Shown: positions 47,897 through 63,027 of the stretch, piece by piece
How the letters are laid out: every line of letters begins with the position of its first letter
Numbering within the stretch: the first letter of the stretch is position 1
Assembly (NCBI GenBank): GCA_020161065.1
Contig: JAIUPH010000028.1
Coordinates: 124,001 to 188,000, forward strand
Direction of reading: 5' to 3'
Length of the DNA: 64,000 nucleotides
From: Pseudomonadota bacterium
GTDB lineage: Bacteria; Pseudomonadota; Gammaproteobacteria; Burkholderiales; Burkholderiaceae_C
Translations under genes and position numbers: made by a program
Notes under the pieces: generated by a model
Seen by the model: only the letters and a program-made list of their open reading frames with translations
Told to the model about the DNA's origin: nothing
The model's database searches: none

Positions 47897-48284
47897 TGCT
47901 GTCCTTCGTCGATGGGCGGTCAAGGACAGATGTCGGACAGACCCTGTACCACAGCCTGCATTGCTTTGACTTCACCTGCGACCGCTTTCCGTGCGGCAAA
48001 CGAGCGGCGTCTGCTTGTGGCCGACCGCGTGATACGGCGACTGACCGGTTTCGGGCACCTGGCCCAAGTGAAACGCGTCGGGGAGGTGCGCGACACCTGC
48101 AACGAGCGCTACATTCATGCCGCTGCGAGGCGAACCGACAACGGTCACGGCGTGCTGCTGCATGATCGACTTGTCGGGTTCGCCGTGGGGCTTTCTGGGC
48201 AAAGCCAACGAAATGTGAAGACACGACAAGCACTTGGCTTCGCACTCGAAGCTCAGGTGCAGAACATCGAGTGACGCGCGCGCC
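47897..48284. other. gene-poor stretch between LysR and the CUT1 operon
   Basis: These 388 bases hold open frames on both strands (plus 47912-48274, 120 codons; minus 47972-48229, 85 codons), but neither shows a recognisable domain or a ribosome-binding site. G+C and codon pattern are less extreme than in flanking genes. A decayed gene or mobile-element remnant is possible. No tRNA, repeat array or clear terminator was seen. Confidence 0.5.
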
Positions 48285-49109
48285 TCAGCCCTTCACCGCG
48301 CCCGCCGTCAATCCCGTGATGATCTGCCGGGCCGCCACGAAGGTGAAGATCAGCGGCGGAATGGCGATCAGGCTGCCCATGGCCATCACGCGGCCCCAGT
48401 CGACGCCGAGGTCGGTGATGAACAGCGATGCGGCCACCGGCAGCGTGCGCGTCTGGCGGTCGGTCAGCACCAGCGCCAGGATGAACTCGTTCCAGGCGAT
48501 GCGGAAGGTGAAGATCGATGCCGCCGCCAGCCCGGGCGCCATCAGCGGCAGCAGCACCTTGCCGAACACGCGCAGCGGGCCGCAGCCGTCGATGGCGGCG
48601 GCCTCTTCCAGTTCCACCGGCACCTGCAGCACGAAGCCGTAGAGCAGCCAGATGGTGAACGGCAGGTTCACCGCCACGTACAGCAGCACCAGCCCCCACA
48701 GGCTGTTGACCAGCTTCCACTCGCTCCAGATCAGGAACACCGGGATGGCCAGCACGGCCAGCGGCACCGTGCGCAGCAGCATGCTGGTGTAGGCGATGGC
48801 GCTGCGCCCCTTGAAGCGAAAGCGCGCCAGGCCGTAGGCCGCCATGCAGCCCAGCACCAGCGTGATGACGGTCGACACCAGGCCGACGAACAGGCTGTTG
48901 GCCAGGTAGCGGTCGAACTTGTCTTCCTCCAGCACCGCGCGGTAGTTCTCCAGCGTCGGCGTGAACAGAAAGTTCAGCGGCGCGGCGAAGATGTCCACCT
49001 GCTGGCGCAGGCTGGTGGCGAAGATCACGAGGATGGGCGCCACGCACAGGAAGGCCAGCAGCGCCAGCACCGCGTAGTGCGCGGCCACCAGCCACGCGGG
49101 GCGCTTCAT
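48285..49109 (-). CDS. carbohydrate ABC transporter permease (CUT1, MalG/UgpE type)
   Basis: Inner-membrane permease of 274 residues with six helices. The N-terminal helix is AAHYAVLALLAFLCVAPILV. The EAA loop is LEEAAAIDGCGPLRVFGKVLLPL near residue 185, exactly the MalG-family pattern (EAA---G---------LP). ATG at 49109 overlaps the stop of the first permease (ATGA). It is the last gene of the long minus-strand sugar-acid directon. The pair of permeases, the receptor and the MalK-like ATPase upstream make a complete CUT1 importer. Confidence 0.93.
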   Translation of the reverse strand: MKRPAWLVAAHYAVLALLAFLCVAPILVIFATSLRQQVDIFAAPLNFLFTPTLENYRAVLEEDKFDRYLANSLFVGLVSTVITLVLGCMAAYGLARFRFKGRSAIAYTSMLLRTVPLAVLAIPVFLIWSEWKLVNSLWGLVLLYVAVNLPFTIWLLYGFVLQVPVELEEAAAIDGCGPLRVFGKVLLPLMAPGLAAASIFTFRIAWNEFILALVLTDRQTRTLPVAASLFITDLGVDWGRVMAMGSLIAIPPLIFTFVAARQIITGLTAGAVKG

Positions 49110-49984
49110 CGCGGCTCTCCCTTCATCGGGTTGCTCAGGCGCAGCGCGCCCCAGCTCAGCAGGGCCACCACCACCAGCAGCAGCACGCTGATGGCCGCGG
49201 CCACGCCCAGCTGCTGGCCGACGAAGGCGGTCTTGTAGATGTGCAGGGCCAGGATCTCGGTGCTGTCGCCGGGGCCGCCGAAGGTCAGCACGTAGATCAC
49301 CTCGAGCACGCGGAAGGCGTCGATCAGCCGCATCATCAAGGTGATGGCGATGATGTGCATCACCATCGGCAGCTTGACGAGCAGCGTCTGCTGCCACCAG
49401 CGCGCGCCGTCGATGCGCGCGGCCTCGATGACGGCGCCGTCGACGTTGGCCAGCGCGGCGATCATCATGATGAAGACGAAGGGCGTCCACTGCCAGATGT
49501 CGGCCACGACGATGGCGACGAAGGCCAGCGTGGGATCGGCCAGCCAGGTCTTGGCGCCGAAGCCCAGCGCCTGCAGCGCCGCGTTGATCAGGCCGAACTG
49601 CGCATCGAACAGGTAGCGCCAGGCCAGGCCCACGGCGATGGGGGCGATCATCATCGGCAGGATGAACAGCGTGCGGAAGAAGGCCATGCCGCGCACCGGA
49701 TGCTCCAGTGCCAGCGCCAGGGCGATGCCCAGCACCATCTCGGCCGTCACGCACACGGCGGCGAACAGCAGCGTCGTCGCCAGGCTGCTCCACACCCTCG
49801 GGTTGGAGAAGGCCGAGACGAAATTGCCCCAGCCGACCCAGCGCGCGCTGTCCCACGGCGTGCCCAGCGCCCAGTCGACGCCGGCCAGCCTGAACGCCGA
49901 CAGCACCGGGTACAGGCAGGCCGCGGCCATCACCACCACGGCGGGCCCGACGTAAAGGGCGGCAACCCAGGGGGGCGTTCTCAT
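49106..49984 (-). CDS. carbohydrate ABC transporter permease (CUT1, MalF/UgpA type)
   Basis: Inner-membrane permease of 292 residues from ATG at 49984; GTG 12 bases upstream is possible. Six helices are present, beginning AALYVGPAVVVMAAACLYPV, and the EAA loop IEAARIDGARWWQQTLLVKLP lies near residue 195. It lacks the long extra N-terminus of MalF, as is usual for UgpA-type subunits. It starts 22 bases after the receptor stop and is coupled to the second permease. Sugar-alcohol, sugar or sugar-acid transport is expected. Confidence 0.92.
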   Translation of the reverse strand: MRTPPWVAALYVGPAVVVMAAACLYPVLSAFRLAGVDWALGTPWDSARWVGWGNFVSAFSNPRVWSSLATTLLFAAVCVTAEMVLGIALALALEHPVRGMAFFRTLFILPMMIAPIAVGLAWRYLFDAQFGLINAALQALGFGAKTWLADPTLAFVAIVVADIWQWTPFVFIMMIAALANVDGAVIEAARIDGARWWQQTLLVKLPMVMHIIAITLMMRLIDAFRVLEVIYVLTFGGPGDSTEILALHIYKTAFVGQQLGVAAAISVLLLVVVALLSWGALRLSNPMKGEPR

Positions 49985-50006
49985 CGCGTGTCGCACCGGG
50001 CCGCGT

Positions 50007-51338
50007 TCAGACCTTGTAGCCGCCTTCGCGCATGATCGCCGTCACCTGCGGCACGAGGTCGTTGAGCGCCTGCTCGGCCGACTTCTTGCCGGTCAGCGCC
50101 TCGCTCAGGCCGACGCCCAGCGCCTGGACGTTGATCTTGTCCCACACCGGGATGATCGGGCGCCAGTCGGGGTTGCTGTACTTCAGCGCCTCGACGAAGG
50201 TGATGAACTCGGGGTACTTGCGCACCGCCTCGGCATCGCGCAGCGTGCTGTTGCGCATGGGCGCGCCGCCGGCCAGCGTGACCGCCTTGTCCTGCGACTT
50301 GGTGGTGAGCCACTGCATCAGCAGGAAGCCGGCCTCGGGGTTCTTGGCGTTCCTCGGGATTGCCAGGCCGAGGCCGCCGCTTTGCGAGGCGCGGCGCACG
50401 CCCTTCGGGTGCAGCGCCCAGCTGACGTTGCCCACCACCTTGCTCTTGCTGGAATCGTTCACCAGGCCGGCCAGCGAGGTGCTGTCCAGGTACATCGCGG
50501 CCTGCCCTTGCAGGAAGGCGGTGTTGCTCTCGCCCTGCCCGTAGCCGGGGATGCCGGCCGGCCCGGTGGCCACCACCTCCTGCAGGAAGCGCAGCGCGTC
50601 GACGCCGGCCTTGTCGTTGAAGCGGGCCTTCCATTGATCGTCGAACACGCTGCCGCCCAGCGGGTTGAGGTGCAGCAGCCAGGCGTGCACCACCTGGTGC
50701 CCGGCCTGGCCGCGGCTGGCCAGCGCGCCGATGCCTTCCTTGTCCTTGATGACGCGCAGCAGCTTGCGGAAGTCGTCGTAGGTCTCGGGCGGCTTGAGGT
50801 TGTGCTTGGCGAAGAGGTCGCGCCGGTAGGCCAGCACGCTGGTCTCGGCGCCATACGGAATGCCGTACAGCTTGGCGCCCGGCCCTGCGAGGTAGCCCTT
50901 GGGGCCGCCGACCAGGCCCAGGTTCTCCAGGTAGATGGGCACGATGTCCTTCATGTCGTACGCCGGGTCGGCCAGCGCCGGGTTGTCGAAGAAGGGCTGC
51001 AGCGGCTGGATCAGGTTCTTGGCGACGTACTCGCCCTTCCACATCACCACGTAGCAGCCGAGGTCGAAGTCGCCGCTGGGCTTGGCCATCTCCAGCAGCT
51101 GCTTGTCCTTCAGGCGGCCCATGGCCAGCTTGTCGAGCTCGACCTTGATGCCGGTCTCCTTGGTGAACTCCGGCAGGATCTTCTGCATCGCGTCGTAGTG
51201 CGGGTGCGCCGGCACGCTGAAGACCACGGTCTTGCCGGCGTACTTGGCATAGCGGTTCTGCGCCTGCGCGCCGCTGAACGGAAAGGCCGCGCCGAAGACG
51301 CTGATGGCGCCGGCCTTGAGGGTGTTTCGTCGGTTCAT
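50007..51338 (-). CDS. carbohydrate ABC transporter substrate-binding protein (CUT1)
   Basis: Periplasmic receptor of 443 residues of the family-1 extracellular solute-binding type. The N-terminus MNRRNTLKAGAISVFGAAF is a twin-arginine-like export signal with cleavage near GAQAQN. Family blocks include QKILPEFTKETGIKVELDKL near residue 55 and AAMYLDSTSLAGLVNDSS near 285. The mature protein has the Trp/Tyr-rich clefts common in sugar receptors. It is preceded by the MalK-like ATPase gene and followed by the two permeases. The ligand is not readable; operon position beside an L-idonate-type gene set suggests a sugar, polyol or sugar acid. Confidence 0.88.
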   Translation of the reverse strand: MNRRNTLKAGAISVFGAAFPFSGAQAQNRYAKYAGKTVVFSVPAHPHYDAMQKILPEFTKETGIKVELDKLAMGRLKDKQLLEMAKPSGDFDLGCYVVMWKGEYVAKNLIQPLQPFFDNPALADPAYDMKDIVPIYLENLGLVGGPKGYLAGPGAKLYGIPYGAETSVLAYRRDLFAKHNLKPPETYDDFRKLLRVIKDKEGIGALASRGQAGHQVVHAWLLHLNPLGGSVFDDQWKARFNDKAGVDALRFLQEVVATGPAGIPGYGQGESNTAFLQGQAAMYLDSTSLAGLVNDSSKSKVVGNVSWALHPKGVRRASQSGGLGLAIPRNAKNPEAGFLLMQWLTTKSQDKAVTLAGGAPMRNSTLRDAEAVRKYPEFITFVEALKYSNPDWRPIIPVWDKINVQALGVGLSEALTGKKSAEQALNDLVPQVTAIMREGGYKV

Positions 51339-51367
51339 CGAGCGGTCTCCTTGCTGAGGGACGGGGT

Positions 51368-52471
<1,104 letters not shown>

Positions 52472-52483
52472 GGTGCCCAGTGC

Positions 52484-53188
52484 TCATGCTTGCGGCCGGC
52501 GGATGCCCCAGCCGATCGGCTTGATGCGGTTGCCCGGGTGCCGGGGGTCGGGCCCCCAGATCGCCTGGTAGGTGTCGATGCAGCGGCCCTGGCGCTGCAG
52601 CCGCCAGGCCAGCGCCGCCAGCAGCAGCCACCAGATCGCCAGCGCCAGCGCCATCCAGCGCGGCGCGTCGGCCACCAGCAGCCCCAGCACCGCGACGACC
52701 AGCGCCGCCAGCACGGCCAGCCAGCCCAGGCCCTTGTGAATGCGCTCGAAGCGCCGGCGCGACGGCGTCATGTCGTAGTGGTCGCCGCGCAAGTGCACGT
52801 CGGTCGGCCCGCCCTTGCTGCCGCGGCCCAGCCCATAGACCACCTGCAGCCAGCCCAGCGCCACCAGCGCCCAGCCCAGGCTGCCATGCAGTTGCGCCGC
52901 CGGCGAAGCGCCCGCGGCGCGGCCGACGGCGAGCGCCGCGCCCACCGACATCAGCAGCACGCCGGCCCATTGCAGCGCCCGGTGCGCGTGCCACCACAGC
53001 TTGTTGTCGAGCTGCTGCGGCCAGCGCTGGCGCGGCAGCACCTTGAAGTAACGCGCTACCAGCGCGCCCAGCGGCAGCAGCACGCACCAGCCCAGCACCA
53101 TGCTGCGCGCGTGCCAGTAGGCCCACGGTTCGATGTGGTGCTGCGCGCTGCCGGACAGCGGCAGCAGCAGCCAGTCGAGAAGGCCCAT
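52484..53188 (-). CDS. cytochrome b561-domain-like membrane protein
   Basis: Membrane protein of 234 residues with about five hydrophobic helices. His residues lie on helices in the pattern of b561-type heme ligands: PWAYWHARSMVLGWCVLLPL near residue 25, WHAHRALQWAGVLLMS near 66, LHGSLGWALVALGWLQVV near 100 and ERIHKGLGWLAVLAALVV near 150. That would bind two hemes and pass electrons across the membrane. The C-terminus holds a short soluble segment with RCIDTYQAIWGPDPRHPGN. It stands between two sugar ABC importers, an unusual place; an electron link to a sugar-oxidising periplasmic enzyme is possible but no such enzyme is next to it. Confidence 0.7.
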   Translation of the reverse strand: MGLLDWLLLPLSGSAQHHIEPWAYWHARSMVLGWCVLLPLGALVARYFKVLPRQRWPQQLDNKLWWHAHRALQWAGVLLMSVGAALAVGRAAGASPAAQLHGSLGWALVALGWLQVVYGLGRGSKGGPTDVHLRGDHYDMTPSRRRFERIHKGLGWLAVLAALVVAVLGLLVADAPRWMALALAIWWLLLAALAWRLQRQGRCIDTYQAIWGPDPRHPGNRIKPIGWGIRRPQA

Positions 53189-53258
53189 GCCGATGCGGTG
53201 GGTGCGGTGCGGTGCGGGGCGGATGGCGGCGGGCCGGGCGGGCGCTGGCCGGGGCCGC

Positions 53259-54368
53259 TCAGCGGCCCCAGATCCGCTTGTACTGTTCGCGGTAGCCGTT
53301 GCCGGGGTCGAAGATGTTCTTGTCGCCGCCGTCGCCGCCGACGTTGGCCGCCGTCACCACGTGCGCCAGCGGCACGTAGCCGGACCACGGCGCCTTGGCG
53401 AAGGCACGGTTCATCTCGTCGATGACCTGCCAGCCCTGCAGGTTCAGCGGCCCCGGCACGGTTGCGCTCTGGTGGTTCTTGGCGCGGATGCGCTGGTACG
53501 CGGCCTCGCTGCCGTCGCCGGCCGACACCGCGTGCGGCAGGTCGTCGCCCTTCTTGCCGGCGGCCTTCAGCGCGCTGCCCCAGAAGTCGAAGTACAGGTC
53601 GTTGATCGCCAGCGCGTGCGTCCAGCGGGCGCCGAAGCGCTGCAGCAGCGAGGTGGTCAGGCCCGGCATGCGCGTGGCGCTGTCGGCGATCGGGCTGTCC
53701 TCGAACGACAGCACCGTGCAGCCGCCGCACTTCTTGATCACCGCCTCCATCGCCTTGGCCTTGTAGATGGCGATCGAATACTGGCTGTCGGTGAAGATCA
53801 CGACGCCGGCCTTGCCGTCGGAATCGGCCACCGCCCACAGCGCGGCGGCTTCCGAGATGTCGTCGGCGGTGACCGTCACGTTGGCGAACAGGCCGGCGCC
53901 CGCGTCGGGCCCCGGCTTGGGGCCGGCGTTCCAGCCGACCAGCGGAATGCCCGCCTTGCTGGCGTTGCCGAAGGCCACCTTCTGCTCGGTGGTGTCGAAG
54001 CCGCCGACGATGATGCCGTCGGGCTTGAGCGCCAGCGCCTGGTTCAGCGCCGCGCCGCGGCCGCTGACGCTGCCGCGCCCGTCGATCACGCGGACGGTCC
54101 AGCCGATCGCCTTGCCGGCTTCCTCGGCGCCCTTGCTGACGCCGACGATGCCGCCGTTGTTCATGTCGGCGGCGACGAAGACCACGGTCTTGTTGGCGGC
54201 CGCCTTCGGGCCCGAGGTGGGGCCGTCCCACTGCGTCTTGGCGGCGGCCAGCTTGGCGACCTTGGCCTTGGCGGCATCGACGAAGGCATCGGCGGCGGCG
54301 CCGCCCGCAAAAGCCAGCAGGCAGGCCGCGGCGAGCGCGGCGCGCGCGAAGTTGACGGCTCGGGTCAT
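53259..54368 (-). CDS. sugar ABC transporter periplasmic receptor (CUT2, RbsB-like)
   Basis: Periplasmic receptor of 369 residues. A signal peptide (ARAALAAACLLAFAGGAAAD) precedes the RbsB-like two-lobed domain: TVVFVAADMNNGGIVGVSKG near residue 60, KPDGIIVGGFDTTEQKVAFG near 115, and a later hinge ALAINDLYFDFWG near 250. It carries an unusually long N-terminal lead of about 35 residues in the mature form. It is the third gene of the SMP-30 - ATPase - permease - receptor unit, nine bases after the permease. The usual gene order in CUT2 operons has the receptor first, so this end position is atypical. Confidence 0.85.
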   Translation of the reverse strand: MTRAVNFARAALAAACLLAFAGGAAADAFVDAAKAKVAKLAAAKTQWDGPTSGPKAAANKTVVFVAADMNNGGIVGVSKGAEEAGKAIGWTVRVIDGRGSVSGRGAALNQALALKPDGIIVGGFDTTEQKVAFGNASKAGIPLVGWNAGPKPGPDAGAGLFANVTVTADDISEAAALWAVADSDGKAGVVIFTDSQYSIAIYKAKAMEAVIKKCGGCTVLSFEDSPIADSATRMPGLTTSLLQRFGARWTHALAINDLYFDFWGSALKAAGKKGDDLPHAVSAGDGSEAAYQRIRAKNHQSATVPGPLNLQGWQVIDEMNRAFAKAPWSGYVPLAHVVTAANVGGDGGDKNIFDPGNGYREQYKRIWGR

Positions 54369-54377
54369 GGAGTCTCC

Positions 54378-55496
54378 TCAGTGTGGGCCGTCGGCGGCCC
54401 GGTGGACTGGCGACGCCGGCGGCACCGCCGGCGCTGCGCCTTCGTCGAGCTGCCGCTGCGAGATGCGGCGGCGAATCGATGCATTGCGGCGCTGCTGCGC
54501 CCAGCCGGCGATGCCGATCGAGATCAGCAGCGTCAACCCGTTGAACAAGGGCTCGACGTAGAACGCGCCGCCGAACTGCTGGATGCCCGAGATGCCGATG
54601 GCCAGGATCGCCACGCCGACCAGCGTGCCCCAGACGTTGACGCGGCCCGGGCGGATGGTGGTGCTGCCCAGGAAGGCGCCCACCAGCGCCGGCAGCAGGA
54701 ACTCCAGCCCCACGCTGGCCTGGCCGATCTGCAGCCGCGACGCCAGCAGCACGCCGGCAAAGCCGCTCAGCACGCCCGAGGCGACGAAGGCGCCGACCAC
54801 GTGGCGGCGCACCGACAGGCCGTTCAGCTCGGCCGCCTTGGGGTTGGCGCCGATCACGTACAGCGCGCGGCCGAGCGGCATGAACTCGGTGACCGCCCAC
54901 AGCACCAACGCGATGGCGGCCACGTAGAACGCCGCCACCGGCAGGCCCAGCCATTCGGCGCCGGCCAGCGCCGTGAAGCCGGCCGGCAGCTCGCCCACCA
55001 CCTGGCGGCCGCCGCTGTGCCACATGGCCACCGCGTAGAGCACGGTGCCGGTGCCCAGCGTGGCGATGAAGCTGTCGATCTGCGCCATCTCCACCAGCAG
55101 GCCGTTGAGCATGCCGAACAGCGCCGCGCAGGCCAGCACGATCAGCACCGCCGCCGGCCACGGCAGCCCATAGCGCGTCTGCAGGCTGATCGCCAGGATG
55201 TGCCACAGCACGATGCCGTAGCCCACCGTGAGGTCGATCTTGCCGGTGATCATCGGGATCATCGCGGCCAGCGCCAGCAGCGCGATGATCGACTTGTCGG
55301 CCAGGATGGCGCGCAGGTTGAACAGCGTCGGGAAGGTGGCGGGCAGCAGCGCCGAGAACAGCAGCGCCAGCGCCACCGTCAGCATCACCAGGCCGTAGCT
55401 GGGCACGGCGCGCGCCAGGCGCTGGGCCAGCGAGCGGGCCGGCCCGTCGAGGCTGGCGTCGGGCTCGAGCGCGGTGGACTTGATCGACGCACTCAT
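54378..55496 (-). CDS. sugar ABC transporter permease (CUT2, RbsC type)
   Basis: Inner-membrane permease of 372 residues with 8-10 helices. The first hydrophobic helix is SYGLVMLTVALALLFSALLP. The RbsC-like block IPMITGKIDLTVGYGIVLWH near residue 80 corresponds to the conserved VAGGIDLSVG segment, and YVIGANPKAAELNGLSVRRH near 220 is the ATPase contact loop with the conserved Gly-Asn-Pro and Ala-Ala residues. A Pro/Ala-rich tail of about 30 residues ends the protein. ATG at 55496 overlaps the ATPase stop by one base. It forms a homodimer in relatives. Confidence 0.92.
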   Translation of the reverse strand: MSASIKSTALEPDASLDGPARSLAQRLARAVPSYGLVMLTVALALLFSALLPATFPTLFNLRAILADKSIIALLALAAMIPMITGKIDLTVGYGIVLWHILAISLQTRYGLPWPAAVLIVLACAALFGMLNGLLVEMAQIDSFIATLGTGTVLYAVAMWHSGGRQVVGELPAGFTALAGAEWLGLPVAAFYVAAIALVLWAVTEFMPLGRALYVIGANPKAAELNGLSVRRHVVGAFVASGVLSGFAGVLLASRLQIGQASVGLEFLLPALVGAFLGSTTIRPGRVNVWGTLVGVAILAIGISGIQQFGGAFYVEPLFNGLTLLISIGIAGWAQQRRNASIRRRISQRQLDEGAAPAVPPASPVHRAADGPH

Positions 55497-57058
55497 CAGG
55501 CAGCCCTCCGGTCGTCGCCGGCCGCCGCCGAGCCGGCGGACAGCGCCAGCAGCCGCGCCATCGTGATGTCGCCGCCGCGCAGTTCGGCGGCGATGCGGCC
55601 GCCGCGGAACACCAGCACGCGGGTGCACACGGTGGCCACTTCCTCGTAGTCGGTGGACACCACCACCAGCCCCGCGCCGGCGGCGGCGCGGCGGCGCAGC
55701 AGCGCGTAGATCTGCCGCTTGGCGCCGACGTCGACGCCGGCGGTGGGCTCTTCCAGCACCTGCACCGGCAGCGCCAGCGCCTCCCAGCGCGCCAGCACCA
55801 CCTTCTGCTGGTTGCCGCCCGACAGTTGCTGCACCACCGCCTGCGGCGCGCGCGGGTTGATGTCGAAGCGCTCGGCCAGCGCCTCGGCGCGCGCCAGCTC
55901 GCGGCGGCGGCGCCCGCCATCGAAGCCGCGCTCGCCGTGCAGGCGCGGGTTCGGGAAGAGGTTCTCCTGCACGCTCATCGAGCCGGCCAGGTTCTGCTCC
56001 AGCCGCTCGCCGGCGGTGTAGCCGATGCCCGCGGCGATGGCCTGCGACGGGCTGCGCAGCACGCGATCGACGCCGGCGACCGCCAGCCGGCCGGCCACCA
56101 GCGGCTCGCAGCCGAACAGCGCGCGGCCGATGGCGTCCTGGCCGGCGCCGCGCAGGCCCACCAGGCCGAGGATCTCGCCGGGCTGCAGCGCCAGGTCCAC
56201 CGGGCCGGCGTTGCCGGCCACCGCGCCGTGCAAGGCCAGCAAGGGCGGCCCGGGGTGCGCCGCGGCCGGCGCGGCCGGCGCGTCCGACGCGGCCGGCACG
56301 TCACCGCGCGGCGCGCTGCCGAGCGGCTGGCCGACGATCAGCTCCACCAGCTCGGCCTCGCCGCTGTCGGCGACGCGGCGCACGCCGACCAGGCGGCCGT
56401 CGCGCATCACGGCGGCGCGGTCGGCGAGCTGCATCACCTCGTCGAGCCGGTGCGACACGTAGATCATGCCCACGCCCTGGCGGCGCAACTCGCGCAGCAC
56501 GTCGAACAGGCGTTGCACGTCGGTCGCCGGCAGGCTGGCGCTGGGCTCGTCGAGCACCAGCAGCCGCGCCTGCACCGCCAGCGCGCGGCCGATGGCCAGC
56601 AGCGACTTCTCGGCCCGCGTCAGCGAGAACACGCGGCGCCGCGGATCGATGTCGCAGCCCACGCGCGCCAGCACGCTGCGCGCGCGCTCGTCGGCGGCGG
56701 CCCAGTCGATCAGGCCGCGGCGCCAACCGAAGCGGCGCGGATAGCCCATGCCCAGCGCCACGTTCTCGGCCACCGTCATCCACTCCACCAGGCCCAGGTC
56801 CTGGTGGATGAAGGCCACCGGCTGGCGCAGCGGGTCGCGGCTGCGCCAGGCCGATTCGGGCTGCCCGTCGAACAGCATCTGGCCGGCGTCGGCCTTGTAG
56901 ATGCCCGCCAGCAGCTTGATCAGCGTGCTCTTGCCGGCGCCGTTCTCGCCCAGCAGCGCCAGCACCTCGCGGGCGTCGACGTCCAGGCTGAGGTCGTCGA
57001 CGGCCTGCGTGCCGCCGAAGCGCTTGCTGACGTTGGCGAAGCGAAGCAGCGCCGTCAT
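55496..57058 (-). CDS. sugar ABC transporter ATPase (CUT2, RbsA/MglA type)
   Basis: Double-length ATPase of 520 residues with two nucleotide-binding halves. Half 1 has Walker A LGENGAGKSTLIKLL near residue 38, a degenerate signature FSLTRAEKSLLAIGRAL near 145 and Walker B LLVLDEPSASL. Half 2 has the altered P-loop region GLVGLRGAGQDAIGRALFG near 305 and an intact signature QLSGGNQQKVVLARWEAL near 415. Its Walker B reads VLEEPTAGVD, with Glu where Asp normally stands. Relatives also keep only part of the motifs in the second half, but the LDEP-to-LEEP change is uncommon in the subgroup. It follows the lactonase gene (ATGA overlap) and precedes the permease. Confidence 0.92.
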   Translation of the reverse strand: MTALLRFANVSKRFGGTQAVDDLSLDVDAREVLALLGENGAGKSTLIKLLAGIYKADAGQMLFDGQPESAWRSRDPLRQPVAFIHQDLGLVEWMTVAENVALGMGYPRRFGWRRGLIDWAAADERARSVLARVGCDIDPRRRVFSLTRAEKSLLAIGRALAVQARLLVLDEPSASLPATDVQRLFDVLRELRRQGVGMIYVSHRLDEVMQLADRAAVMRDGRLVGVRRVADSGEAELVELIVGQPLGSAPRGDVPAASDAPAAPAAAHPGPPLLALHGAVAGNAGPVDLALQPGEILGLVGLRGAGQDAIGRALFGCEPLVAGRLAVAGVDRVLRSPSQAIAAGIGYTAGERLEQNLAGSMSVQENLFPNPRLHGERGFDGGRRRRELARAEALAERFDINPRAPQAVVQQLSGGNQQKVVLARWEALALPVQVLEEPTAGVDVGAKRQIYALLRRRAAAGAGLVVVSTDYEEVATVCTRVLVFRGGRIAAELRGGDITMARLLALSAGSAAAGDDRRAA

Positions 57059-57978
57059 GACGTGGCGCCGCGGGTGCGCAGCCGGATGCGGTAGAGCGAC
57101 GTGCTGGCGCAGATGAACAGCTCGTCGCCGGCGGCGCCGCCGAACACCAGGTTGCCCACCTTCTCCGGCACCGGAATGCGGCCGATGCGCGTGCCGTCGG
57201 CGTGGTAGACCTGCACGCTGTCGGCGCTGCTGGTGTAGACGAAGCCGTTGACGTCGACGCGCAGGCCGTCGGCCAGGCCCGGCTCGATGACGGCGAACAC
57301 GCGCGGCCGCCCCAGGTCTTGCCCCGCGACCACGTCGAACACGGCGATGTGATGGTGGCCGCCGCCGTCACTGCGCAGCGCCGCCGAGGTGTCGCTGACG
57401 TAGAGCAGCGATTCGTCGGGCGAGAAGGCCAGGCCGTTGGGCTCTTGCACCCAGTCGCTCACGATGCGCGTGGCGCCGCTGGCCGGGTCGTGGCGGAAGA
57501 CGTAGCAATCGCCGAGCTCGCTCTCGGCCCGGTGGCCTTCGCGATCGGACACGATGCCGTAGGGCGGGTCGGTGAACCAGATGCTGCCGTCGCGCTTGAC
57601 GACCACGTCGTTGGGCGAGTTGAAGCGCCGCCCCTGGTAGCGGTCGACGACGATGTCGTCGCCCAGCGGGCGGCCGGCGGCGTCGAAGCGCGTGCGCAGG
57701 ATGGCGCGGCGCCCGTGCGAGCAATGCAGCAGCGCGCCGTCGGCTTCCAGCACGTGGCCGTTGGTGAACTCCACCGCCTCCTGCCAGACGCGCAGGCCGC
57801 GCTGCTCGTGCCAGCACAGCATGCGGTTGTTGGGGATGTCGCTCCACAGCAGCTCGGCCGACCGCGGCAGCCACACGGGCCCTTCGCTCCAGGCCGCGCC
57901 CGAGCACAGGCACTGCAGCGGCCCCGCGCCGTCGGCGACGGCGGCGAAGCGCGGATCGAGCACCTGGAGGGCCGGCAT
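57055..57978 (-). CDS. SMP-30/gluconolactonase-family lactonase
   Basis: Beta-propeller lactonase of 307 residues. Metal ligands and catalytic residues appear as Glu in AAWSEGPVWLPRSAEL near residue 30, Asn in FNSPNDVVVKRDGSIWFTDP near 120, Asn in WVQEPNGLAFSPDESLL near 178 and Asp in GLADGLRVDVNGFVY near 240. These are the same positions as in human SMP-30 and bacterial gluconolactonase. It would open aldonolactones to aldonates, feeding the idonate/gluconate genes. It heads the CUT2 operon, its stop overlaps the ATPase start, and its 5' region carries the first of four GntR-type palindromes 23 bases from the ATG. Confidence 0.9.
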   Translation of the reverse strand: MPALQVLDPRFAAVADGAGPLQCLCSGAAWSEGPVWLPRSAELLWSDIPNNRMLCWHEQRGLRVWQEAVEFTNGHVLEADGALLHCSHGRRAILRTRFDAAGRPLGDDIVVDRYQGRRFNSPNDVVVKRDGSIWFTDPPYGIVSDREGHRAESELGDCYVFRHDPASGATRIVSDWVQEPNGLAFSPDESLLYVSDTSAALRSDGGGHHHIAVFDVVAGQDLGRPRVFAVIEPGLADGLRVDVNGFVYTSSADSVQVYHADGTRIGRIPVPEKVGNLVFGGAAGDELFICASTSLYRIRLRTRGATS

Positions 57979-58000
57979 GCGGCGAGTGTCGATGAAAAGC

Positions 58001-58014
58001 AGTTACCGGTAACT
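58001..58014. promoter_or_regulatory. GntR/IdnR-type operator 1 (lactonase side)
   Basis: AGTTACCGGTAACT is a perfect 14-base palindrome 23 bases upstream of the lactonase ATG. The TTACCGGTAA core is the form known for E. coli GntR/IdnR operators. It would repress or activate the minus-strand lactonase - CUT2 operon. Confidence 0.75.
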
Positions 58015-58105
58015 AGCACTTACCCGAGGGCGGCCGGGCCTGGCGCTTCGCCTATGATCGACGCGCACCGAGTGCCGTCGCCGCCGCGGCGCCGGCCTCG
58101 ACCTT

Positions 58106-58117
58106 GACACCGGTATC
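58106..58117. promoter_or_regulatory. GntR/IdnR-type operator 2 (repressor side)
   Basis: GACACCGGTATC differs by one base from the palindrome GATACCGGTATC. It overlaps TTGACA at 58104-58109, a perfect -35-like element facing the repressor gene at 58153, although no good -10 box follows. Autoregulation by this site is likely. Confidence 0.65.
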
Positions 58118-58152
58118 GCTTGTTCCTCCAACCGCCCGCATCAGAGGTCGAC

Positions 58153-59412
58153 GTGCCCGCCCGAACCGCATCCGCCCCGCGCAAGGCCTCGCACCAGGTC
58201 TCGCACAAGGCCTCGCACAAGGCCTCGCACCAGGCCGCGCCCCAGCCCACGGCCAAGCCGAAGGCCAAGGCCAAGGCCGCGGCCAAGCCCGTTCCCGTGC
58301 CCAGGCCCGGCGCCCGCGGCGCGGCCGCCAAGCGCGCATCACCGACGCCGAAGCCGACGCCGACGCCAACGCCACCACCGCCGCCGGTCAAGCCGGTCAC
58401 GATGGCCGACATCGCCGCGCGCCTGGGCGTGTCGAAGATGACGGTGTCGCGTGCGCTCAACCGCGAAGGCAGCAACCCGCGCAGCACCAGCGAAGCGCTG
58501 CGCCAGCGCATCCTGCAAGCCTGCCAGGAAATGGGTTATGTGGTCGACCAGACGGCGCGCACCTTCTCGTCCAAGCGCTCGGGCTTCGTCGCCGCGCTGG
58601 TGCCGGCGCTGAACAACTCCAACTTCTCCGACACCGCCCACGGGCTGACCGCCGCGCTGGAGGCGAGCGGCCTGCAACTGCTGCTGGGCTACACCGACTA
58701 CGACGCCGCCACCGAGGAGCGGCTGCTGCGCGCCCTGCTCAGCCGGCGGCCCGAAGCGGTGGTCGTCACCGGCGGCACGCACACGCCGGCGGCGCGCAAG
58801 CTGCTCAAGGCGGCTGGCATCCCGGTCGTCGAAACCTGGGACCTGCCGGCGCAGCCGATCGACCATTGCGTGGGCTTCTCCAACGCCGAAGCGGTGGCGC
58901 AACTGGTGCGCCAGTTGCACGCGCAGGGCCACCGGCGCATCGGCTTCCTGGGCGGCCTGCCGAGCAGCGACGCCCGCGGCGCCGACCGCCGCCGCGGCTA
59001 CGAGAGCGCGATGCGCGAGCTCGGCCTCGATGCGACGCGGCAGCTCAGCGTCGGCCAGGCGCCGGTGTCGATGGAGCACGGCGCCCAGGGCGTCGTGCAA
59101 CTGCTGCACCGCTGGCCCGACACGCAGGCCCTGGTCTGCGTCTCGGACCATCCGGCGTTCGGCGCGCTGGCCGAATGCCAGCGCCGCGGCATCGCGGTGC
59201 CGGGCCGGCTGGCCATCGCCGGCTTCGGCGGCTTCGAGGTCGGCGCCAGCTGCCACCCGCGGCTGACCACCGTGGCGGTCGACTGCGCCGGCATCGGCCG
59301 TGCCGCCGGCGAGCTGCTGCTGCGCGCCATCGCCGCGGCGCGCGACGGCCGGCGGCTGTCGCCGGAGACCGTGCTGATCCCCTATCGCGTGGAGATGCGC
59401 GGAAGCACTTGA
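58153..59412 (+). CDS. LacI-family repressor, GntR (gluconate/idonate) type, with Lys/Ala/Pro-rich N-terminal extension
   Basis: Regulator of 419 residues from GTG at 58153 (AGAGG upstream); TTG at 58120 is possible. The LacI HTH lies at about residues 82-105 (VTMADIAARLGVSKMTVSRA). The ligand domain follows (TFSSKRSGFVAALVPALNNS, THTPAARKLLKAAGIPVVE), the latter block shared with E. coli GntR, which binds gluconate. Unusually, the HTH is preceded by about 80 residues rich in Lys, Ala and Pro, including four ASHK/ASHQ-type repeats coded by a 12-base tandem repeat and a PTPTPTPPPP run. This resembles histone-H1-like tails and may add nonspecific DNA binding. It is divergent from the lactonase operon and convergent with the idnD-like gene. 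Confidence 0.88.
   Translation: MPARTASAPRKASHQVSHKASHKASHQAAPQPTAKPKAKAKAAAKPVPVPRPGARGAAAKRASPTPKPTPTPTPPPPPVKPVTMADIAARLGVSKMTVSRALNREGSNPRSTSEALRQRILQACQEMGYVVDQTARTFSSKRSGFVAALVPALNNSNFSDTAHGLTAALEASGLQLLLGYTDYDAATEERLLRALLSRRPEAVVVTGGTHTPAARKLLKAAGIPVVETWDLPAQPIDHCVGFSNAEAVAQLVRQLHAQGHRRIGFLGGLPSSDARGADRRRGYESAMRELGLDATRQLSVGQAPVSMEHGAQGVVQLLHRWPDTQALVCVSDHPAFGALAECQRRGIAVPGRLAIAGFGGFEVGASCHPRLTTVAVDCAGIGRAAGELLLRAIAAARDGRRLSPETVLIPYRVEMRGST
58186..58233 (+). repeat. 12-bp tandem repeat, four copies, inside the repressor gene
   Basis: Four adjoining 12-base units of the form GCCTCGCAC(C/A)AG encode Ala/Val-Ser-His-Gln/Lys repeats in the N-terminal tail of the LacI-family regulator. Units differ at one or two bases. 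Copy number could vary by slippage and change the tail length. Confidence 0.85.
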
Positions 59413-59422
59413 AGGCGCCGGC

Positions 59423-60523
59423 TCAGGCGGCCTCGGCGGCGAAGTCCAGCAGCACCTTCATCGCACGCTTGCGGTCGCCGGCCAGCTCGAAGGCTTCGCG
59501 CGCGCGTGCCAGCGGGAAGGCGCCCGTGATCATCGGCCGCAGGTCGATGCGGCCTTCGTTGATCAGCCGCACGGCCAGCCTGAACTCGTCGTGGAAGCGG
59601 AAGCTGCCCAGCAGCGCCAGCTCCTTGGCGACGATCAGGTTTTGCGGCACCGAGACGTCGCCGCCCAGCCCCAACTGCACCACGGTGCCGCGCGGCCGCA
59701 TGGCGTCCAGCCCGGCGCGCAGCGCACGCTCGTTGCCGCTGCACTCGAACATCACGTCGAAGCTGCCCTTGTCGGCGCTGAAGCGCTCGGTCCACTGCGC
59801 ATCGCGCGCGGCGTTGATCGTCGCTTGCGCGCCCATCGCCCGCGCCACGGCCAGCGTCTCGTCGGTGAGGTCCACCGCCGTCACCTCGGCCGCGCCATGG
59901 ATGCGCGCCGCCGCCACGGCCAGCGTGCCGATGGGCCCGCAGCCCGACACCAGCACGCGCTTGCCCAGCAGCGCGCCGGCGCGCTGCACGCCGTGCAGCG
60001 CCACCGAGAACGGCTCCGCCAGCGCGGCGTGCTGCAGCGGCACGTGCGCGGCGACGGGTTCGCATTGCACGGCGTCGCACACCAGCACGTTGCGGAAGGC
60101 GCCTTCGACGTGCGGGTCGCGCATGGCGCTGCCATAAAAGCGCATGTCCAGGCATTGGTTGGGCAGGCCTTCGAGGCAGTATTTGCAGCCGCCGCAAGGC
60201 CGGCTGGGGTTGACGGCGACCTTGTCGCCGACCTTGATGCGCACCACGCCCGGCGCCACGGCGCCCACCGTGCCCGCCACCTCGTGCCCGAGGATCATCG
60301 GCCGCTTGATGCGCACCGCGCCGAAGCCGCCGGCGTGAAAGTAATGCAGGTCCGAGCCGCAGATGCCGCCGAAGCCCACCTGCACCACCACCTGCCCGGG
60401 CCCCGGTTCGCCGGCGTCCTGCTCGACGACGCGCAGGTCGTCGGGCGCGTTGATCACCAGGCAGGTGCAGCGCAGCCGCAGCGGCCGCCCGTCGTCGGAG
60501 GCTTCGAGCGTCGTGTTCGTCAT
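59423..60523 (-). CDS. idnD: L-idonate 5-dehydrogenase (zinc MDR family)
   Basis: NAD(P)-dependent zinc dehydrogenase of 366 residues that would oxidise L-idonate to 5-keto-D-gluconate. FGGICGSDLHYFHAGGFGAV near residue 51 holds the catalytic Cys and the family-specific HYFHAGGFG stretch. PMILGHEVAGTVG near 76 holds the zinc His-Glu, and the structural zinc loop is CGGCKYCLEGLPNQC near 110. The Rossmann fingerprint is VSGCGPIGTLAVAAARIHGA near 193. This wording matches IdnD better than sorbitol or threonine dehydrogenases. The gene is divergent from the SDR gene and has its own operator 21 bases upstream. It is convergent with the repressor gene. Confidence 0.85.
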   Translation of the reverse strand: MTNTTLEASDDGRPLRLRCTCLVINAPDDLRVVEQDAGEPGPGQVVVQVGFGGICGSDLHYFHAGGFGAVRIKRPMILGHEVAGTVGAVAPGVVRIKVGDKVAVNPSRPCGGCKYCLEGLPNQCLDMRFYGSAMRDPHVEGAFRNVLVCDAVQCEPVAAHVPLQHAALAEPFSVALHGVQRAGALLGKRVLVSGCGPIGTLAVAAARIHGAAEVTAVDLTDETLAVARAMGAQATINAARDAQWTERFSADKGSFDVMFECSGNERALRAGLDAMRPRGTVVQLGLGGDVSVPQNLIVAKELALLGSFRFHDEFRLAVRLINEGRIDLRPMITGAFPLARAREAFELAGDRKRAMKVLLDFAAEAA

Positions 60524-60543
60524 GTGGGAACTTGTCTGGGATG

Positions 60544-60555
60544 GTGACCGGTAAC
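60544..60555. promoter_or_regulatory. GntR/IdnR-type operator 3 (idnD side)
   Basis: GTGACCGGTAAC matches the palindrome GTTACCGGTAAC at all but one position and lies 21 bases upstream of the idnD-like ATG. Confidence 0.65.
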
Positions 60556-60623
60556 TTTAGTGGTCGCTGGACGAGTCTGCCGCAGGGAAAACACTGCATA
60601 GCCGATTTGCGGCCGACGCCTAC

Positions 60624-60635
60624 GATACCGGTATC
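60624..60635. promoter_or_regulatory. GntR/IdnR-type operator 4 (SDR side)
   Basis: GATACCGGTATC is a perfect 12-base palindrome 72 bases before the SDR start. It has the same TACCGGTA core as sites 1-3 and probably controls the SDR - gluconokinase - dehydrogenase operon. Confidence 0.72.
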
Positions 60636-60706
60636 AACTTTGTCGCGGCGCCTTCAATGCATCGGCGGCGACGCGGCACCCGTTCCCCCACTCGGCGAGG
60701 CTCGAC

Positions 60707-61474
<768 letters not shown>

Positions 61475-61498
61475 CGGCGAGCGCGGCGGGTGGCTGAC

Positions 61499-62086
61499 AT
61501 GTCCCAGCCCAAGCGCGTGGTGGTGATGGGGGTCAGCGGTTGCGGCAAGTCGGCGCTCGCCGGCGGGCTTGCCGAATGGTTGGGCTGGCGAATGGTCGAC
61601 GCCGACGACCTGCACGCGCCGGCGGCGGTGGCGCGCATGCGCGCCGGCCGGGCGCTGGACGATGCCGAGCGGCTGCCGTGGCTCGACCGCGTCGGCGCGG
61701 TGCTGGCCGACGCCGCGGCGCAAGGCCAGGGCCTGGTGGTCGCGTGTTCCGCGCTGCGCCGCGTTCACCGCGACCGGCTGCGCGCGGCCTGCCCCGATCT
61801 GGGCTTCATCTTCCTCAGCGGCAGCCGCGAACGCATCGCCGAGCGCCTGGCGCAGCGCCGTGGCCACTACATGCCGGCGTCGCTGCTGGACAGCCAGCTG
61901 CAGACCCTCGAACCGCCGGGCGCCGACGAGCCCGACGTGCTGCACCTGGGCATCGAGCCACCCTTGGCGCAACTGGTGCGGCAAGCCGCCGACGCCGTTC
62001 AAGCGGGCGAACGAGCGGCTGAACGAACGGCAGAACGAGCGGCAGAACCGACCGCCGCCGCGCCCCCCATGGAGCCTCGCGCATGA
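61499..62086 (+). CDS. gntK: gluconokinase (thermoresistant type)
   Basis: Kinase of 195 residues from ATG at 61499 (GTG at 61490 is possible) that phosphorylates D-gluconate to 6-phosphogluconate. The P-loop VMGVSGCGKSALAGGLAEWL lies near residue 12, the gluconate-binding block MVDADDLHAPAAVARMRAGR near 32, and LPWLDRVGAVLAD near 60. VACSALRRVHRDRLR near 82 and FIFLSGSRERIAERLAQRRGHYM near 104 are the lid region. All belong to the GntK/IdnK family. The C-terminus has an extra Ala/Glu/Arg tail coded by a 12-base tandem repeat. The stop overlaps the next gene's start (ATGA). Confidence 0.92.
   Translation: MSQPKRVVVMGVSGCGKSALAGGLAEWLGWRMVDADDLHAPAAVARMRAGRALDDAERLPWLDRVGAVLADAAAQGQGLVVACSALRRVHRDRLRAACPDLGFIFLSGSRERIAERLAQRRGHYMPASLLDSQLQTLEPPGADEPDVLHLGIEPPLAQLVRQAADAVQAGERAAERTAERAAEPTAAAPPMEPRA
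62009..62056 (+). repeat. 12-bp tandem repeat, about four copies, at the gluconokinase C-terminus
   Basis: Units GAACGAGCGGCT / GAACGAACGGCA / GAACGAGCGGCA / GAACCGACCGCC encode ERAA-ERTA-ERAA-EPTA. They add a charged tail beyond the kinase fold. This is the second in-frame 12-base repeat in the same regulon, the first being in the repressor gene. Confidence 0.8.
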
Positions 62087-63027
62087 CCGATATCGATAAC
62101 GCCACCGCCACCGCCACCCCGCCGCAGCGCTGGCGCGTCGCCGTGATCGGCGTGGGCATCATGGGCAACGCCATCGCGCGCCGGCTCGCCGAGTGCGGCC
62201 ACGACCTGGCCGTGTTCGATCTCGATCGCGGCAAGCTGCAGCCGTTGCTGGCGCTCGGCGCCAGGGCACCGGCCAGCGCCGCCGACGCGGCGCGCGGCGC
62301 GGCGTTCGTCATCACCAGCCTCAACTCGGCGGCCATCGTTCGCAGCGCCGTGTTCGGCGATGGCGGCGTGGCCGAGGGGCTGGGCGCCGACGCGCTGCTG
62401 GTCGACATGTCGTCGATCGATCCGCCGTCCACGCGCGCGCTCGGCGACGAACTGCGGCGGCGCTGCGGCGCGGGCTGGGTCGACGCGCCGCTGTCCGGCG
62501 GCGCGCCCAAGGCCTTGCGCGGCACGCTGACGGTGATGGCCGGCGGCACCGCAGCCGACGTCGCCAGGGCCCGGCTGCTGATGAAGGACTTGTGCGCCCA
62601 CTACACCCACATGGGCCCGGCCGGCGCCGGCCAGACCACCAAGCTGGTGAACCAGTTGCTGTGCGCCATCGGCTTCCAGGCCGTGGCCGAAGCGGTGCGG
62701 CTGGCCGAAGCCGGCGGCGTCGACGCCGCCCGCCTGGCGCAAGCCCTGCAAGGCGGCCGCGCCGACAGCCAGATCCTCGCCGAGTTCGGCCCCAAGATGG
62801 CCGCCCGCGACGACACCCCGACCGGCCGCATCGACAACATGCTCAAGGACCTGGAGGCCGTGCAGGCCTTCTCGCAAAGCCAGCGCCTGCCGCTGCCCCT
62901 GACCGGCCACGTGGCCGAACTGCACCGCGCCTTCGTGGCCGCGGGCCTCGGTGCCGCCGACACGGTGGCCATGATGAAGCAGTTCGACGGTTACCGCGCG
63001 GTGTCGCCGATCGCGCCGGCCGCGTAG
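62083..63027 (+). CDS. NAD(P)-dependent beta-hydroxyacid dehydrogenase (6-phosphogluconate-dehydrogenase-like)
   Basis: Oxidoreductase of 314 residues of the 3-hydroxyisobutyrate/tartronate-semialdehyde/6PGDH family. The nucleotide fingerprint is VAVIGVGIMGNAIARRLAEC near residue 19, the substrate block VDAPLSGGAPKALRGTLTVM near 132, and the catalytic Lys is in AGQTTKLVNQLLCAIGFQ near 185. At 314 residues it is too short for classical 6-phosphogluconate dehydrogenase, so 2-hydroxy-3-oxopropionate reductase-like or a short 6PGDH-like enzyme is likely. Coupled to gntK by ATGA overlap, it should act on the gluconokinase product or on a side branch. Its last 37 bases overlap the end of soxG on the other strand. 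Confidence 0.82.
   Translation: MTDIDNATATATPPQRWRVAVIGVGIMGNAIARRLAECGHDLAVFDLDRGKLQPLLALGARAPASAADAARGAAFVITSLNSAAIVRSAVFGDGGVAEGLGADALLVDMSSIDPPSTRALGDELRRRCGAGWVDAPLSGGAPKALRGTLTVMAGGTAADVARARLLMKDLCAHYTHMGPAGAGQTTKLVNQLLCAIGFQAVAEAVRLAEAGGVDAARLAQALQGGRADSQILAEFGPKMAARDDTPTGRIDNMLKDLEAVQAFSQSQRLPLPLTGHVAELHRAFVAAGLGAADTVAMMKQFDGYRAVSPIAPAA

What the first reader, a model, noticed from the sequence alone, without database searches (positions are those of the whole stretch)
57055..63027. Idonate/gluconate regulon defined by four TACCGGTA palindromes
Four sites (58001, 58106, 60544, 60624) share the core ACCGGTA and are palindromic or one base away from it. They stand exactly upstream of the lactonase/CUT2 operon, the GntR-like repressor, the idnD-like gene and the idnO-gntK operon. 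The E. coli GntR/IdnR operators have the same core. The site set links lactone opening, import and the L-idonate - 5-ketogluconate - gluconate - 6-phosphogluconate route under one repressor in a betaproteobacterium.
Basis: partly seen in the sequence, partly recalled or inferred. Interest (0 to 1): 0.72.

Follow-up and report, generated by a model that had tools for sequence, protein, structure and literature searches.

The report
Idonate-type sugar-acid regulon, LacI-family repressor
Four near-identical DNA switches control a gene set that most likely imports and breaks down sugar-acid lactones in an environmental betaproteobacterium; the switch is real and conserved in relatives, and it is a regional variant of a well-known kind of bacterial sugar-acid control.

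Summary
Confirmed, with corrections. The four sites are at the stated places; two are exact TACCGGTA, two are one base off. In the 6.29-Mb genome both perfect GWTACCGGTAWC sites, and 4 of the 8 with at most one mismatch, lie here; the other four lie inside ORFs. The motif is concentrated, not abundant (8 against 12 for the reversed control). All 22 lactonase|repressor divergons among 80 fetched relatives carry a perfect site in otherwise diverged DNA. Of 25 same-genus genomes, the 3 with a close repressor orthologue have perfect sites at this system; one other genome has one, in coding sequence.
Corrections: the lactonase operon probably runs to 48253; the idnO operon has a third gene; four idnD|idnO divergons in relatives lack sites; 25 of 39 Burkholderia-group loci have the operator upstream of an aldonate-type dehydratase instead; E. 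coli operators are near matches only; orthology with E. coli GntR/IdnR is unproved. Binding, substrate and effector are untested. A variant of the GntR/IdnR kind with a lactonase and ABC import, no GntP permease over cut-off.

The parts
58001..58014 (.). Operator 1, AGTTACCGGTAACT, 23 bp (near edge) from the lactonase start codon
   Evidence: 12 of 12 consensus positions; a 12 of 12 site is present in 22 of 22 lactonase|repressor divergons of the 80 fetched loci
58106..58117 (.). Operator 2, GACACCGGTATC, just upstream of the repressor gene (probable autoregulation)
   Evidence: 11 of 12; a second site of at least 10 of 12 is listed in 14 of the 22 divergons, in 10 of these 105-107 bp from the first; 104 bp in the window
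60544..60555 (.). Operator 3, GTGACCGGTAAC, 21 bp (near edge) from the idnD-like start codon
   Evidence: 11 of 12
60624..60635 (.). Operator 4, GATACCGGTATC, 72 bp (near edge) from the idnO-like start codon
   Evidence: 12 of 12; 80 bp from operator 3
58153..59412 (+). LacI-family repressor (ORF open from TTG 58120; GTG 58153 has an AGAGG before it and is the likelier start, by eye); HTH GVSKMTVSRALNR, sugar-binding domain
57055..57978 (-). SMP-30/gluconolactonase-type lactonase, first gene of the leftward operon
   Evidence: Pfam PF08450 135.6 bits; both PDB relatives found are named gluconolactonase; no NCBIfam match
55496..57058 (-). CUT2-type sugar ABC importer, ATPase
54378..55496 (-). 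CUT2 permease (start uncertain; ORF open to 55628; scanned from 55535)
   Evidence: PF02653
53259..54368 (-). CUT2 substrate-binding protein
   Evidence: PF13407
52484..53188 (-). cytochrome b561-like membrane protein; next to the lactonase in G008
   Evidence: PF03188 25.2 bits, cut-off 23; 76% to L046
51368..52471 (-). CUT1/MalK-type ABC ATPase, probably the same transcript
50007..51338 (-). CUT1 substrate-binding protein
   Evidence: PF01547
49106..49996 (-). CUT1 permease A
   Evidence: PF00528
48253..49095 (-). CUT1 permease B (no Pfam or NCBIfam hit itself; relatives in the same place, one of them a PF00528 permease)
59423..60523 (-). L-idonate 5-dehydrogenase-like enzyme (IdnD)
   Evidence: 41% to E. 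coli IdnD; best PDB match L-idonate 5-dehydrogenase 6dkh; NCBIfam 364.6 bits, below its cut-off 469
60707..61474 (+). 5-keto-D-gluconate 5-reductase-like enzyme (IdnO)
   Evidence: 54% to E. coli IdnO; NCBIfam gluconate 5-dehydrogenase 343.4 bits, below its cut-off 408; best model is a general SDR subfamily, 400.9 of 413 bits
61490..62086 (+). gluconokinase, GntK/IdnK type
   Evidence: TIGR01313 170.1 bits, above its cut-off 113.75
62083..63027 (+). 3-hydroxyisobutyrate/tartronate-semialdehyde reductase-type dehydrogenase, third gene of the idnO operon; follows GntK in several relatives

Best explanation
A LacI-family repressor dimer binds the palindrome GWTACCGGTAWC at four places and represses (a) a leftward operon that opens sugar-acid lactones and imports sugar acids or lactones through one or two ABC importers, (b) its own gene, (c) an idnD-like gene and (d) an idnO-gntK-dehydrogenase operon. 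When an intracellular sugar acid of the pathway binds the repressor, it lets go and the set is expressed: lactone to aldonate (SMP-30 lactonase), L-idonate to 5-ketogluconate (IdnD), to D-gluconate (IdnO), to 6-phosphogluconate (GntK), then the Entner-Doudoroff route (an edd gene lies elsewhere in the genome, at none of the eight motif places). Shown: gene content by homology, site positions, site conservation, concentration of the motif here and co-occurrence with the repressor. Inferred: binding, repression, effector, substrate, and the extent of the transcripts.
For: Sites present and concentrated. Footprint: in 23 lactonase|repressor regions (22 loci and the window) aligned on the site, 1.90 bits per column in the 12 site columns against 0.25 and 0.44 in the flanks (aligned by choosing the best site in each, which favours the site columns). 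Density: within -700 to +6000 of the repressor helix in 40 orthologues of at least 64% identity, 75 sites of 11-12 of 12 against 5 for the reversed palindrome; 35 of 40 have at least one. Co-occurrence: of 25 same-genus genomes incl. own, all 3 with a 71-100% orthologue and 1 of the 22 others have a perfect site, Fisher p 0.0017. Unlinked target: G020 idnD|idnO on another contig has two sites. Negative control: upstream of idnO paralogues of 65-69% identity 0 of 22 have a site of at least 10 of 12. Helix: KMTVSR as in E. coli GntR and IdnR; of the 7 LacI-family proteins of this genome whose helix could be read only this one has Lys-Met. No GntP-family permease above cut-off in the genome; edd present.
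Against: Motif count genome-wide is not above control. Four idnD|idnO divergons in relatives have no site (L093, L098, L169, L171), and idnO of L168 and L170 have none upstream either. L070, L072, L088 and L090 have a close repressor and no site within the stretch searched (L090 is a short contig); L083 has its sites about 6 kb off. Of 39 Burkholderia-group loci, 13 have no perfect site and 25 have it upstream of a dehydratase rather than idn genes. The link between Lys-Met helix and motif is not independent: all 80 named loci have Lys-Met because the scan used that peptide, and L032, a distant Lys-Met protein, has no perfect site in its locus. IdnD and IdnO score below the NCBIfam cut-offs. 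No sigma-70-like promoter found by the scan. No binding or expression data.
Confidence: 0.8

Rival explanations
1. The regulon is real but its substrate is another sugar acid or lactone (for example L-gulonate, 2-keto-L-gulonate or L-galactonate); the idn-like enzymes belong to a wider aldonate pathway and the effector is not gluconate or idonate.
For: In the sister clade 25 of 39 loci have the perfect operator within 2.2 kb upstream of a PRK13017-type dihydroxyacid/aldonate dehydratase, with an MFS carrier in the loci annotated (L111, L108). A Variovorax locus read in full (L075) has a 2-hydroxyacid dehydrogenase between idnD and the divergent sites, and L166 has its homologue there too (63%); this would fit entry of a 2-ketoaldonate. 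The CUT2 binding protein has no solved relative at 1e-5 and neither binding protein reaches a curated cut-off.
Against: IdnO 54% to E. coli IdnO, a gluconokinase above the curated cut-off, and the idnD-idnO-gntK trio are best explained by a route that ends at gluconate.
Confidence: 0.3
2. The paired operators act as a unit: two repressor dimers interact across 60-92 bp (idnD|idnO) and about 105 bp (lactonase|repressor) to make a repression loop.
For: idnD|idnO pairs are spaced 60, 69-71, 79-81 and 92 bp; with one value per lineage as I chose them the phase concentration at 10.5 bp is R 0.885, p 0.004 against uniform spacing. Lactonase|repressor pairs are 105-107 bp apart in 10 of 14 loci and 104 in the window.
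Against: Post hoc, six or seven lineages chosen by hand; the lactonase|repressor pairs do not keep phase (R 0.46, p 0.19), with 56, 86, 97 and 100 bp also seen; a paired-TACCGGTA scan of 399 family genomes found 4 pairs at 49-79 bp, of which one (G434) is at idnO and three were not followed up.
Confidence: 0.25
3. The sites are chance or a general sequence preference unrelated to this repressor.
For: Genome-wide counts are not above the reversed-pattern control.
Against: Footprint, density, co-occurrence and unlinked target.
Confidence: 0.02

Closest known systems
E. coli GntII/idn system (idnDOTR + idnK) with IdnR and GntR
   Same: IdnD 41%, IdnO 54%, IdnK 37% and GntR 36% / IdnR 31% identity; identical KMTVSR recognition helix; idnD divergent from a partner gene (idnK); TTAC/GTAAC half-sites
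   Different: Here ABC importers and a lactonase, where E. coli has the carrier IdnT (its GntP-family membership is recalled); no GntP-family protein above cut-off in this genome. Repressor in another clade of the tree. Operator core TACCGGTA where the E. coli sites read TACGGGTA, TATCGGTA and TACGCATA
GntR of Pseudomonas (P. aeruginosa, P. plecoglossicida)
   Same: Its NCBIfam model is the best-scoring one for this repressor (278 bits against cut-off 400), though another protein of this genome scores higher with it (297.9 bits); published as a gluconate repressor with autoregulation
   Different: Published operator is AGCGCT-centred (PMC12195362 abstract and passages; PMC5902321 passages); no match of that motif in the window with up to one mismatch
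PtxS of Pseudomonas
   Same: LacI family, ACCGGT-centred palindrome TGAAACCGGTTTCA, 2-ketogluconate genes (passages of PMC5902321 and PMC12195362)
   Different: Outer bases differ (AAACCGGTTT, not TTACCGGTAA or ATACCGGTAT); gene set differs; the protein was not compared by sequence here
LacI-family regulons compiled by Ravcheev et al. 2014
   Same: Even palindromes with central CG, mostly 30-140 bp upstream of starts, several sites per divergon; GntR and IdnR groups (section 9 and passages of PMC4052901)
   Different: A word search of its main text found no Comamonadaceae; its supplements and the RegPrecise database could not be read here, so this regulon may already be listed there

Membership tests
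LacI-family transcription factor | LacI HTH plus periplasmic-binding-protein-like domain | tested here: met
   PF00356 47.2 bits and PF13377 118.8 bits, both over cut-off
LacI-family transcription factor | even palindromic operator with central CG near the regulated starts | tested here: met
   rule from PMC4052901 section 9; three of the four sites lie 21 to 36 bp (near edge) from the nearest start, one 72 bp
E. coli GntR/IdnR orthologous group | curated model score | tested here: not met
   GntR 186.8 of 433 bits, IdnR 202.3 of 500 bits
E. coli GntR/IdnR orthologous group | recognition helix Lys-Met | tested here: met
   KMTVSR in all three
E. coli GntR/IdnR orthologous group | common clade | tested here: inconclusive
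   separate clades in the ML tree; one clade of all Lys-Met rows not rejected, p-AU 0.068
Pseudomonas GntR (NF052440) | curated cut-off 400 bits | tested here: not met
   278 bits
Pseudomonas GntR (NF052440) | AGCGCT-centred operator | tested here: not met
   0 matches of AGNNAGCGCTNTCT in the window with up to one mismatch
idn (GntII-like) gene system | IdnD, IdnO and GntK/IdnK homologues together | tested here: met
idn (GntII-like) gene system | GntP-family carrier (IdnT) | tested here: not met
   best 20.3 bits against cut-off 22.5 in the whole genome, 98.73% complete
idn (GntII-like) gene system | L-idonate and 5-ketogluconate activity and induction | not testable with these tools
   needs enzyme and growth tests

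The most novel reading that the evidence does not exclude
A distinct Burkholderiales branch of LacI repressors has kept one operator (GWTACCGGTAWC) while its regulated pathway was swapped: aldonate dehydratase and MFS carrier in Burkholderia-group genomes, lactonase, ABC importers and idn genes in the Comamonadaceae group, with paired operators held on one face of the helix for looping. The shared effector would then be an aldonate or its lactone rather than gluconate.
Probability: 0.25. Interest if true: 0.5.

Novelty: new variant of a known kind. Interest (0 to 1): 0.33.

Why it matters
It ties two ABC importers and a lactonase of unknown substrate to a defined sugar-acid pathway through one operator, which gives a testable substrate range for them. 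It also gives a case in which repressor and operator stay fixed while the regulated pathway changes between sister clades, and an idn-type system that works without a GntP carrier.

Tried and rejected
Helical phasing of paired sites as a general rule: suggestive for idnD|idnO, not for lactonase|repressor; kept only as a rival. A paired-motif scan of 399 family genomes gave 4 pairs, too few to test spacing; three were not followed up. Motif abundance as evidence: rejected, counts are not above the control. Helix-motif correlation as independent evidence: one search gave 67 of 89 Lys-Met loci with a perfect site against 1 of 42 others (77 against 5 at 11 of 12), but on checking 80 of the 89 came from a scan with that very peptide and 6 of the other 9 are repeats of G000, G008 and G020, so I do not count it; confidence lowered from 0.82 in my draft to 0.8 for this. 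Five of the 136 loci given had no repressor match and were dropped. A first regular expression for the helix missed most proteins and was replaced by aligned positions. A first count of idnD|idnO divergons used too short a gap and found 4 including G020; repeated with a wider gap on the 80 loci and found 16. A first look upstream of idnO in 30 loci did not turn the reversed ones; repeated. Pseudomonas GntR-type operator: sought, not found. Literature for a published betaproteobacterial idn regulon: I saw no such title in the listings (25 of 79 papers listed; 2; 4; 7; 15 of 408 listed; 6; 3 listed of 4). Of the papers I saw only PMC4052901 (section 9 and passages), PMC12195362 (abstract and passages) and PMC5902321 (passages). 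Supplements and RegPrecise were out of reach.
Full report
What was checked. ACCGGTA is over-represented in the window (7 against 1.22 expected, 0 of 100 shuffles).

Genome. The window is part of a 41-contig, 6.29-Mb genome; the closest named repressors are from Comamonadaceae, Rubrivivax and other Burkholderiales assemblies. GWTACCGGTAWC occurs perfectly twice, both here; with up to one mismatch eight times, four here; the other four (contigs 13, 18, 20, 40) lie inside ORFs. The totals are not above the reversed-pattern control (2 vs 1, 8 vs 12, and 207 vs 210 with two mismatches).

Genus. Of 25 genomes including this one, three hold a repressor orthologue of 71-100% identity (G000, G008, G020; the next best in the genus is 44%). 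Perfect motifs occur in those three (2, 2 and 3) and in one other, G021 (1) (Fisher p 0.0017). All seven in the three genomes are at this system: between lactonase and repressor, before idnO here, before gntK in G008, and at an idnD|idnO divergon on a different contig in G020. The G021 site lies within a stretch that aligns to IdnD at 32%, thus coding. Most genomes of other families of the order in that call also have a few perfect motifs (10 of 16 that I count with none or some are listed there: 9 have at least one); these were only partly looked at and are not claimed as this regulon.

Named relatives. A scan of genome contigs with a three-sequence profile returned 80 loci, the best of 469. 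Twenty-two have lactonase and repressor back to back; all 22 carry a 12-of-12 site, and 14 list a second site, 10 of them 105-107 bp away (104 in the window). On 23 regions including the window the 12 site columns hold 1.90 bits each against 0.25 and 0.44 in the flanks. Sixteen have idnD and idnO divergent (up to 1.5 kb apart); 14 of 16 carry a site pair, and L093 and L098 carry none. Among 40 orthologues of at least 64% identity 35 have a site in the stretch searched; L070, L072, L083, L088 and L090 do not, though L083 has a pair about 6 kb away.

Family sample. IdnO was sought in 399 genomes; 30 loci were delivered. Of the 8 of at least 77% identity, 4 have sites upstream (window, L166, L167, L172; L166 and L172 show the same sites as L061 and L096 and are probably the same genomes), 4 do not (L168, where idnO follows the repressor gene directly, L169, L170, L171); of the 22 of 65-69% identity none has a site of at least 10 of 12. 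L093 and L169 share another stretch between idnD and idnO, and L098 and L171 a further one (by eye), which suggests other regulators there.

Repressor. It has the LacI HTH and sugar-binding domains. Its helix GVSKMTVSRALNR shares Lys-Met with E. coli GntR and IdnR; of the 7 LacI-family proteins of this genome whose helix could be read it alone has Lys-Met. Across fetched loci 67 of 89 Lys-Met loci hold a perfect site against 1 of 42 others, but 80 of the 89 were found through that peptide and L032, a distant Lys-Met protein, has none, so this is not independent evidence. In a 37-row tree the window protein sits with the Comamonadaceae group, in one clade with Burkholderia-group proteins (100/99), and E. 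coli GntR and IdnR sit elsewhere; holding all Lys-Met rows together is not rejected (p-AU 0.068). In the Burkholderia group 26 of 39 loci have a perfect site; 29 hold a PRK13017-type dehydratase; 25 have both, with a site within 2.2 kb upstream of the dehydratase in all 25; none of the 41 other loci holds it. Thirteen of the 39 have no perfect site.

Gene set. Leftward from operator 1: lactonase, CUT2 ATPase, permease, binding protein, b561-like protein, CUT1 ATPase, binding protein and two permeases, all on one strand with gaps of at most 70 bp down to 48253. G008 has lactonase-b561-CUT1 and no CUT2 match in the 17 kb read; G020 has lactonase-CUT2, but its contig ends about 1.3 kb past it, so CUT1 cannot be excluded. 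Rightward from operator 4: idnO, gntK and a 3-hydroxyisobutyrate-dehydrogenase-type gene; the last follows gntK in several Variovorax and Polaromonas loci. Identities to E. coli: IdnO 54%, IdnD 41%, IdnK 37%. GntK is over its curated cut-off, IdnD and IdnO are below theirs. The genome has an edd (899.9 bits, over cut-off) and no GntP-family permease over cut-off (20.3 of 22.5 bits).

Mechanism. Most likely a repressor that autoregulates and holds the four transcripts off until a pathway acid is present. The near edges of the operators lie 21 to 23 bp from the starts of idnD and lactonase and 72 bp from idnO, at or slightly closer than the usual 30-140 bp of LacI-family sites (PMC4052901 section 9). 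The promoter scan found no sigma-70-like site, so overlap with a promoter could not be shown. Spacings of the idnD|idnO pairs (60, 69-71, 79-81, 92) suggest helical phasing (R 0.885, p 0.004, lineages chosen by me after seeing the data); the lactonase|repressor pairs do not (p 0.19).

E. coli comparison. The gntR-gntK sites of MG1655 are ATGTTACGGGTAACTG and CTGTTATCGGTAACAT, each 11 of 12 and 13 bp apart; the best idnK|idnD intergenic site is ATGTTACGCATAACGT, 9 of 12. So 'same core' holds for the half-sites, not for the full ACCGGTA.

Verdict. It is a variant of the GntR/IdnR kind, not a new kind. It may already be in RegPrecise, which I could not read.

Noticed in passing
window 58153-58395: The repressor has an N-terminal extension of some 80 residues before its helix, rich in Lys, Ala and Pro with KASH repeats; the match of the G008 orthologue begins only at residue 59.
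   Followed up: no
window 48253-57978: Two different sugar ABC importers (CUT2 and CUT1) stand in one run behind the lactonase; in the stretches fetched, relatives show one, the other or both.
   Followed up: partly
window 62083-63027: A 3-hydroxyisobutyrate/tartronate-semialdehyde reductase-type gene is conserved behind gntK in several Variovorax and Polaromonas loci; its part in the pathway is unknown.
   Followed up: partly
G000 contig 21, 158437-160668: A second idnO-like gene (67%) with a 2-hydroxyacid dehydrogenase homologue (41%) near it, perhaps a second idonate-type cluster; in other genomes idnO paralogues of this kind often have idnD of about 55% behind them and no such operator.
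   Followed up: partly
L075 12123-13076: In this Variovorax locus a 2-hydroxyacid dehydrogenase lies between idnD and the divergent sites, which could feed 2-ketoaldonates into the route.
   Followed up: partly
L093 12180-12275, L169 1370-1510, L098 12100-12235, L171 1370-1510: idnD|idnO divergons without the operator share other stretches, one between L093 and L169 and one between L098 and L171, perhaps sites of other regulators.
   Followed up: no
L108 11269-13049: The dehydratase of this Cupriavidus locus is read in two overlapping ORFs, so its frame is broken in this record.
   Followed up: no
L099: A Hyphomicrobiales MAG holds a 58% repressor with idnD, dehydrogenase and CUT2 genes in another order, perhaps a transfer between classes.
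   Followed up: no
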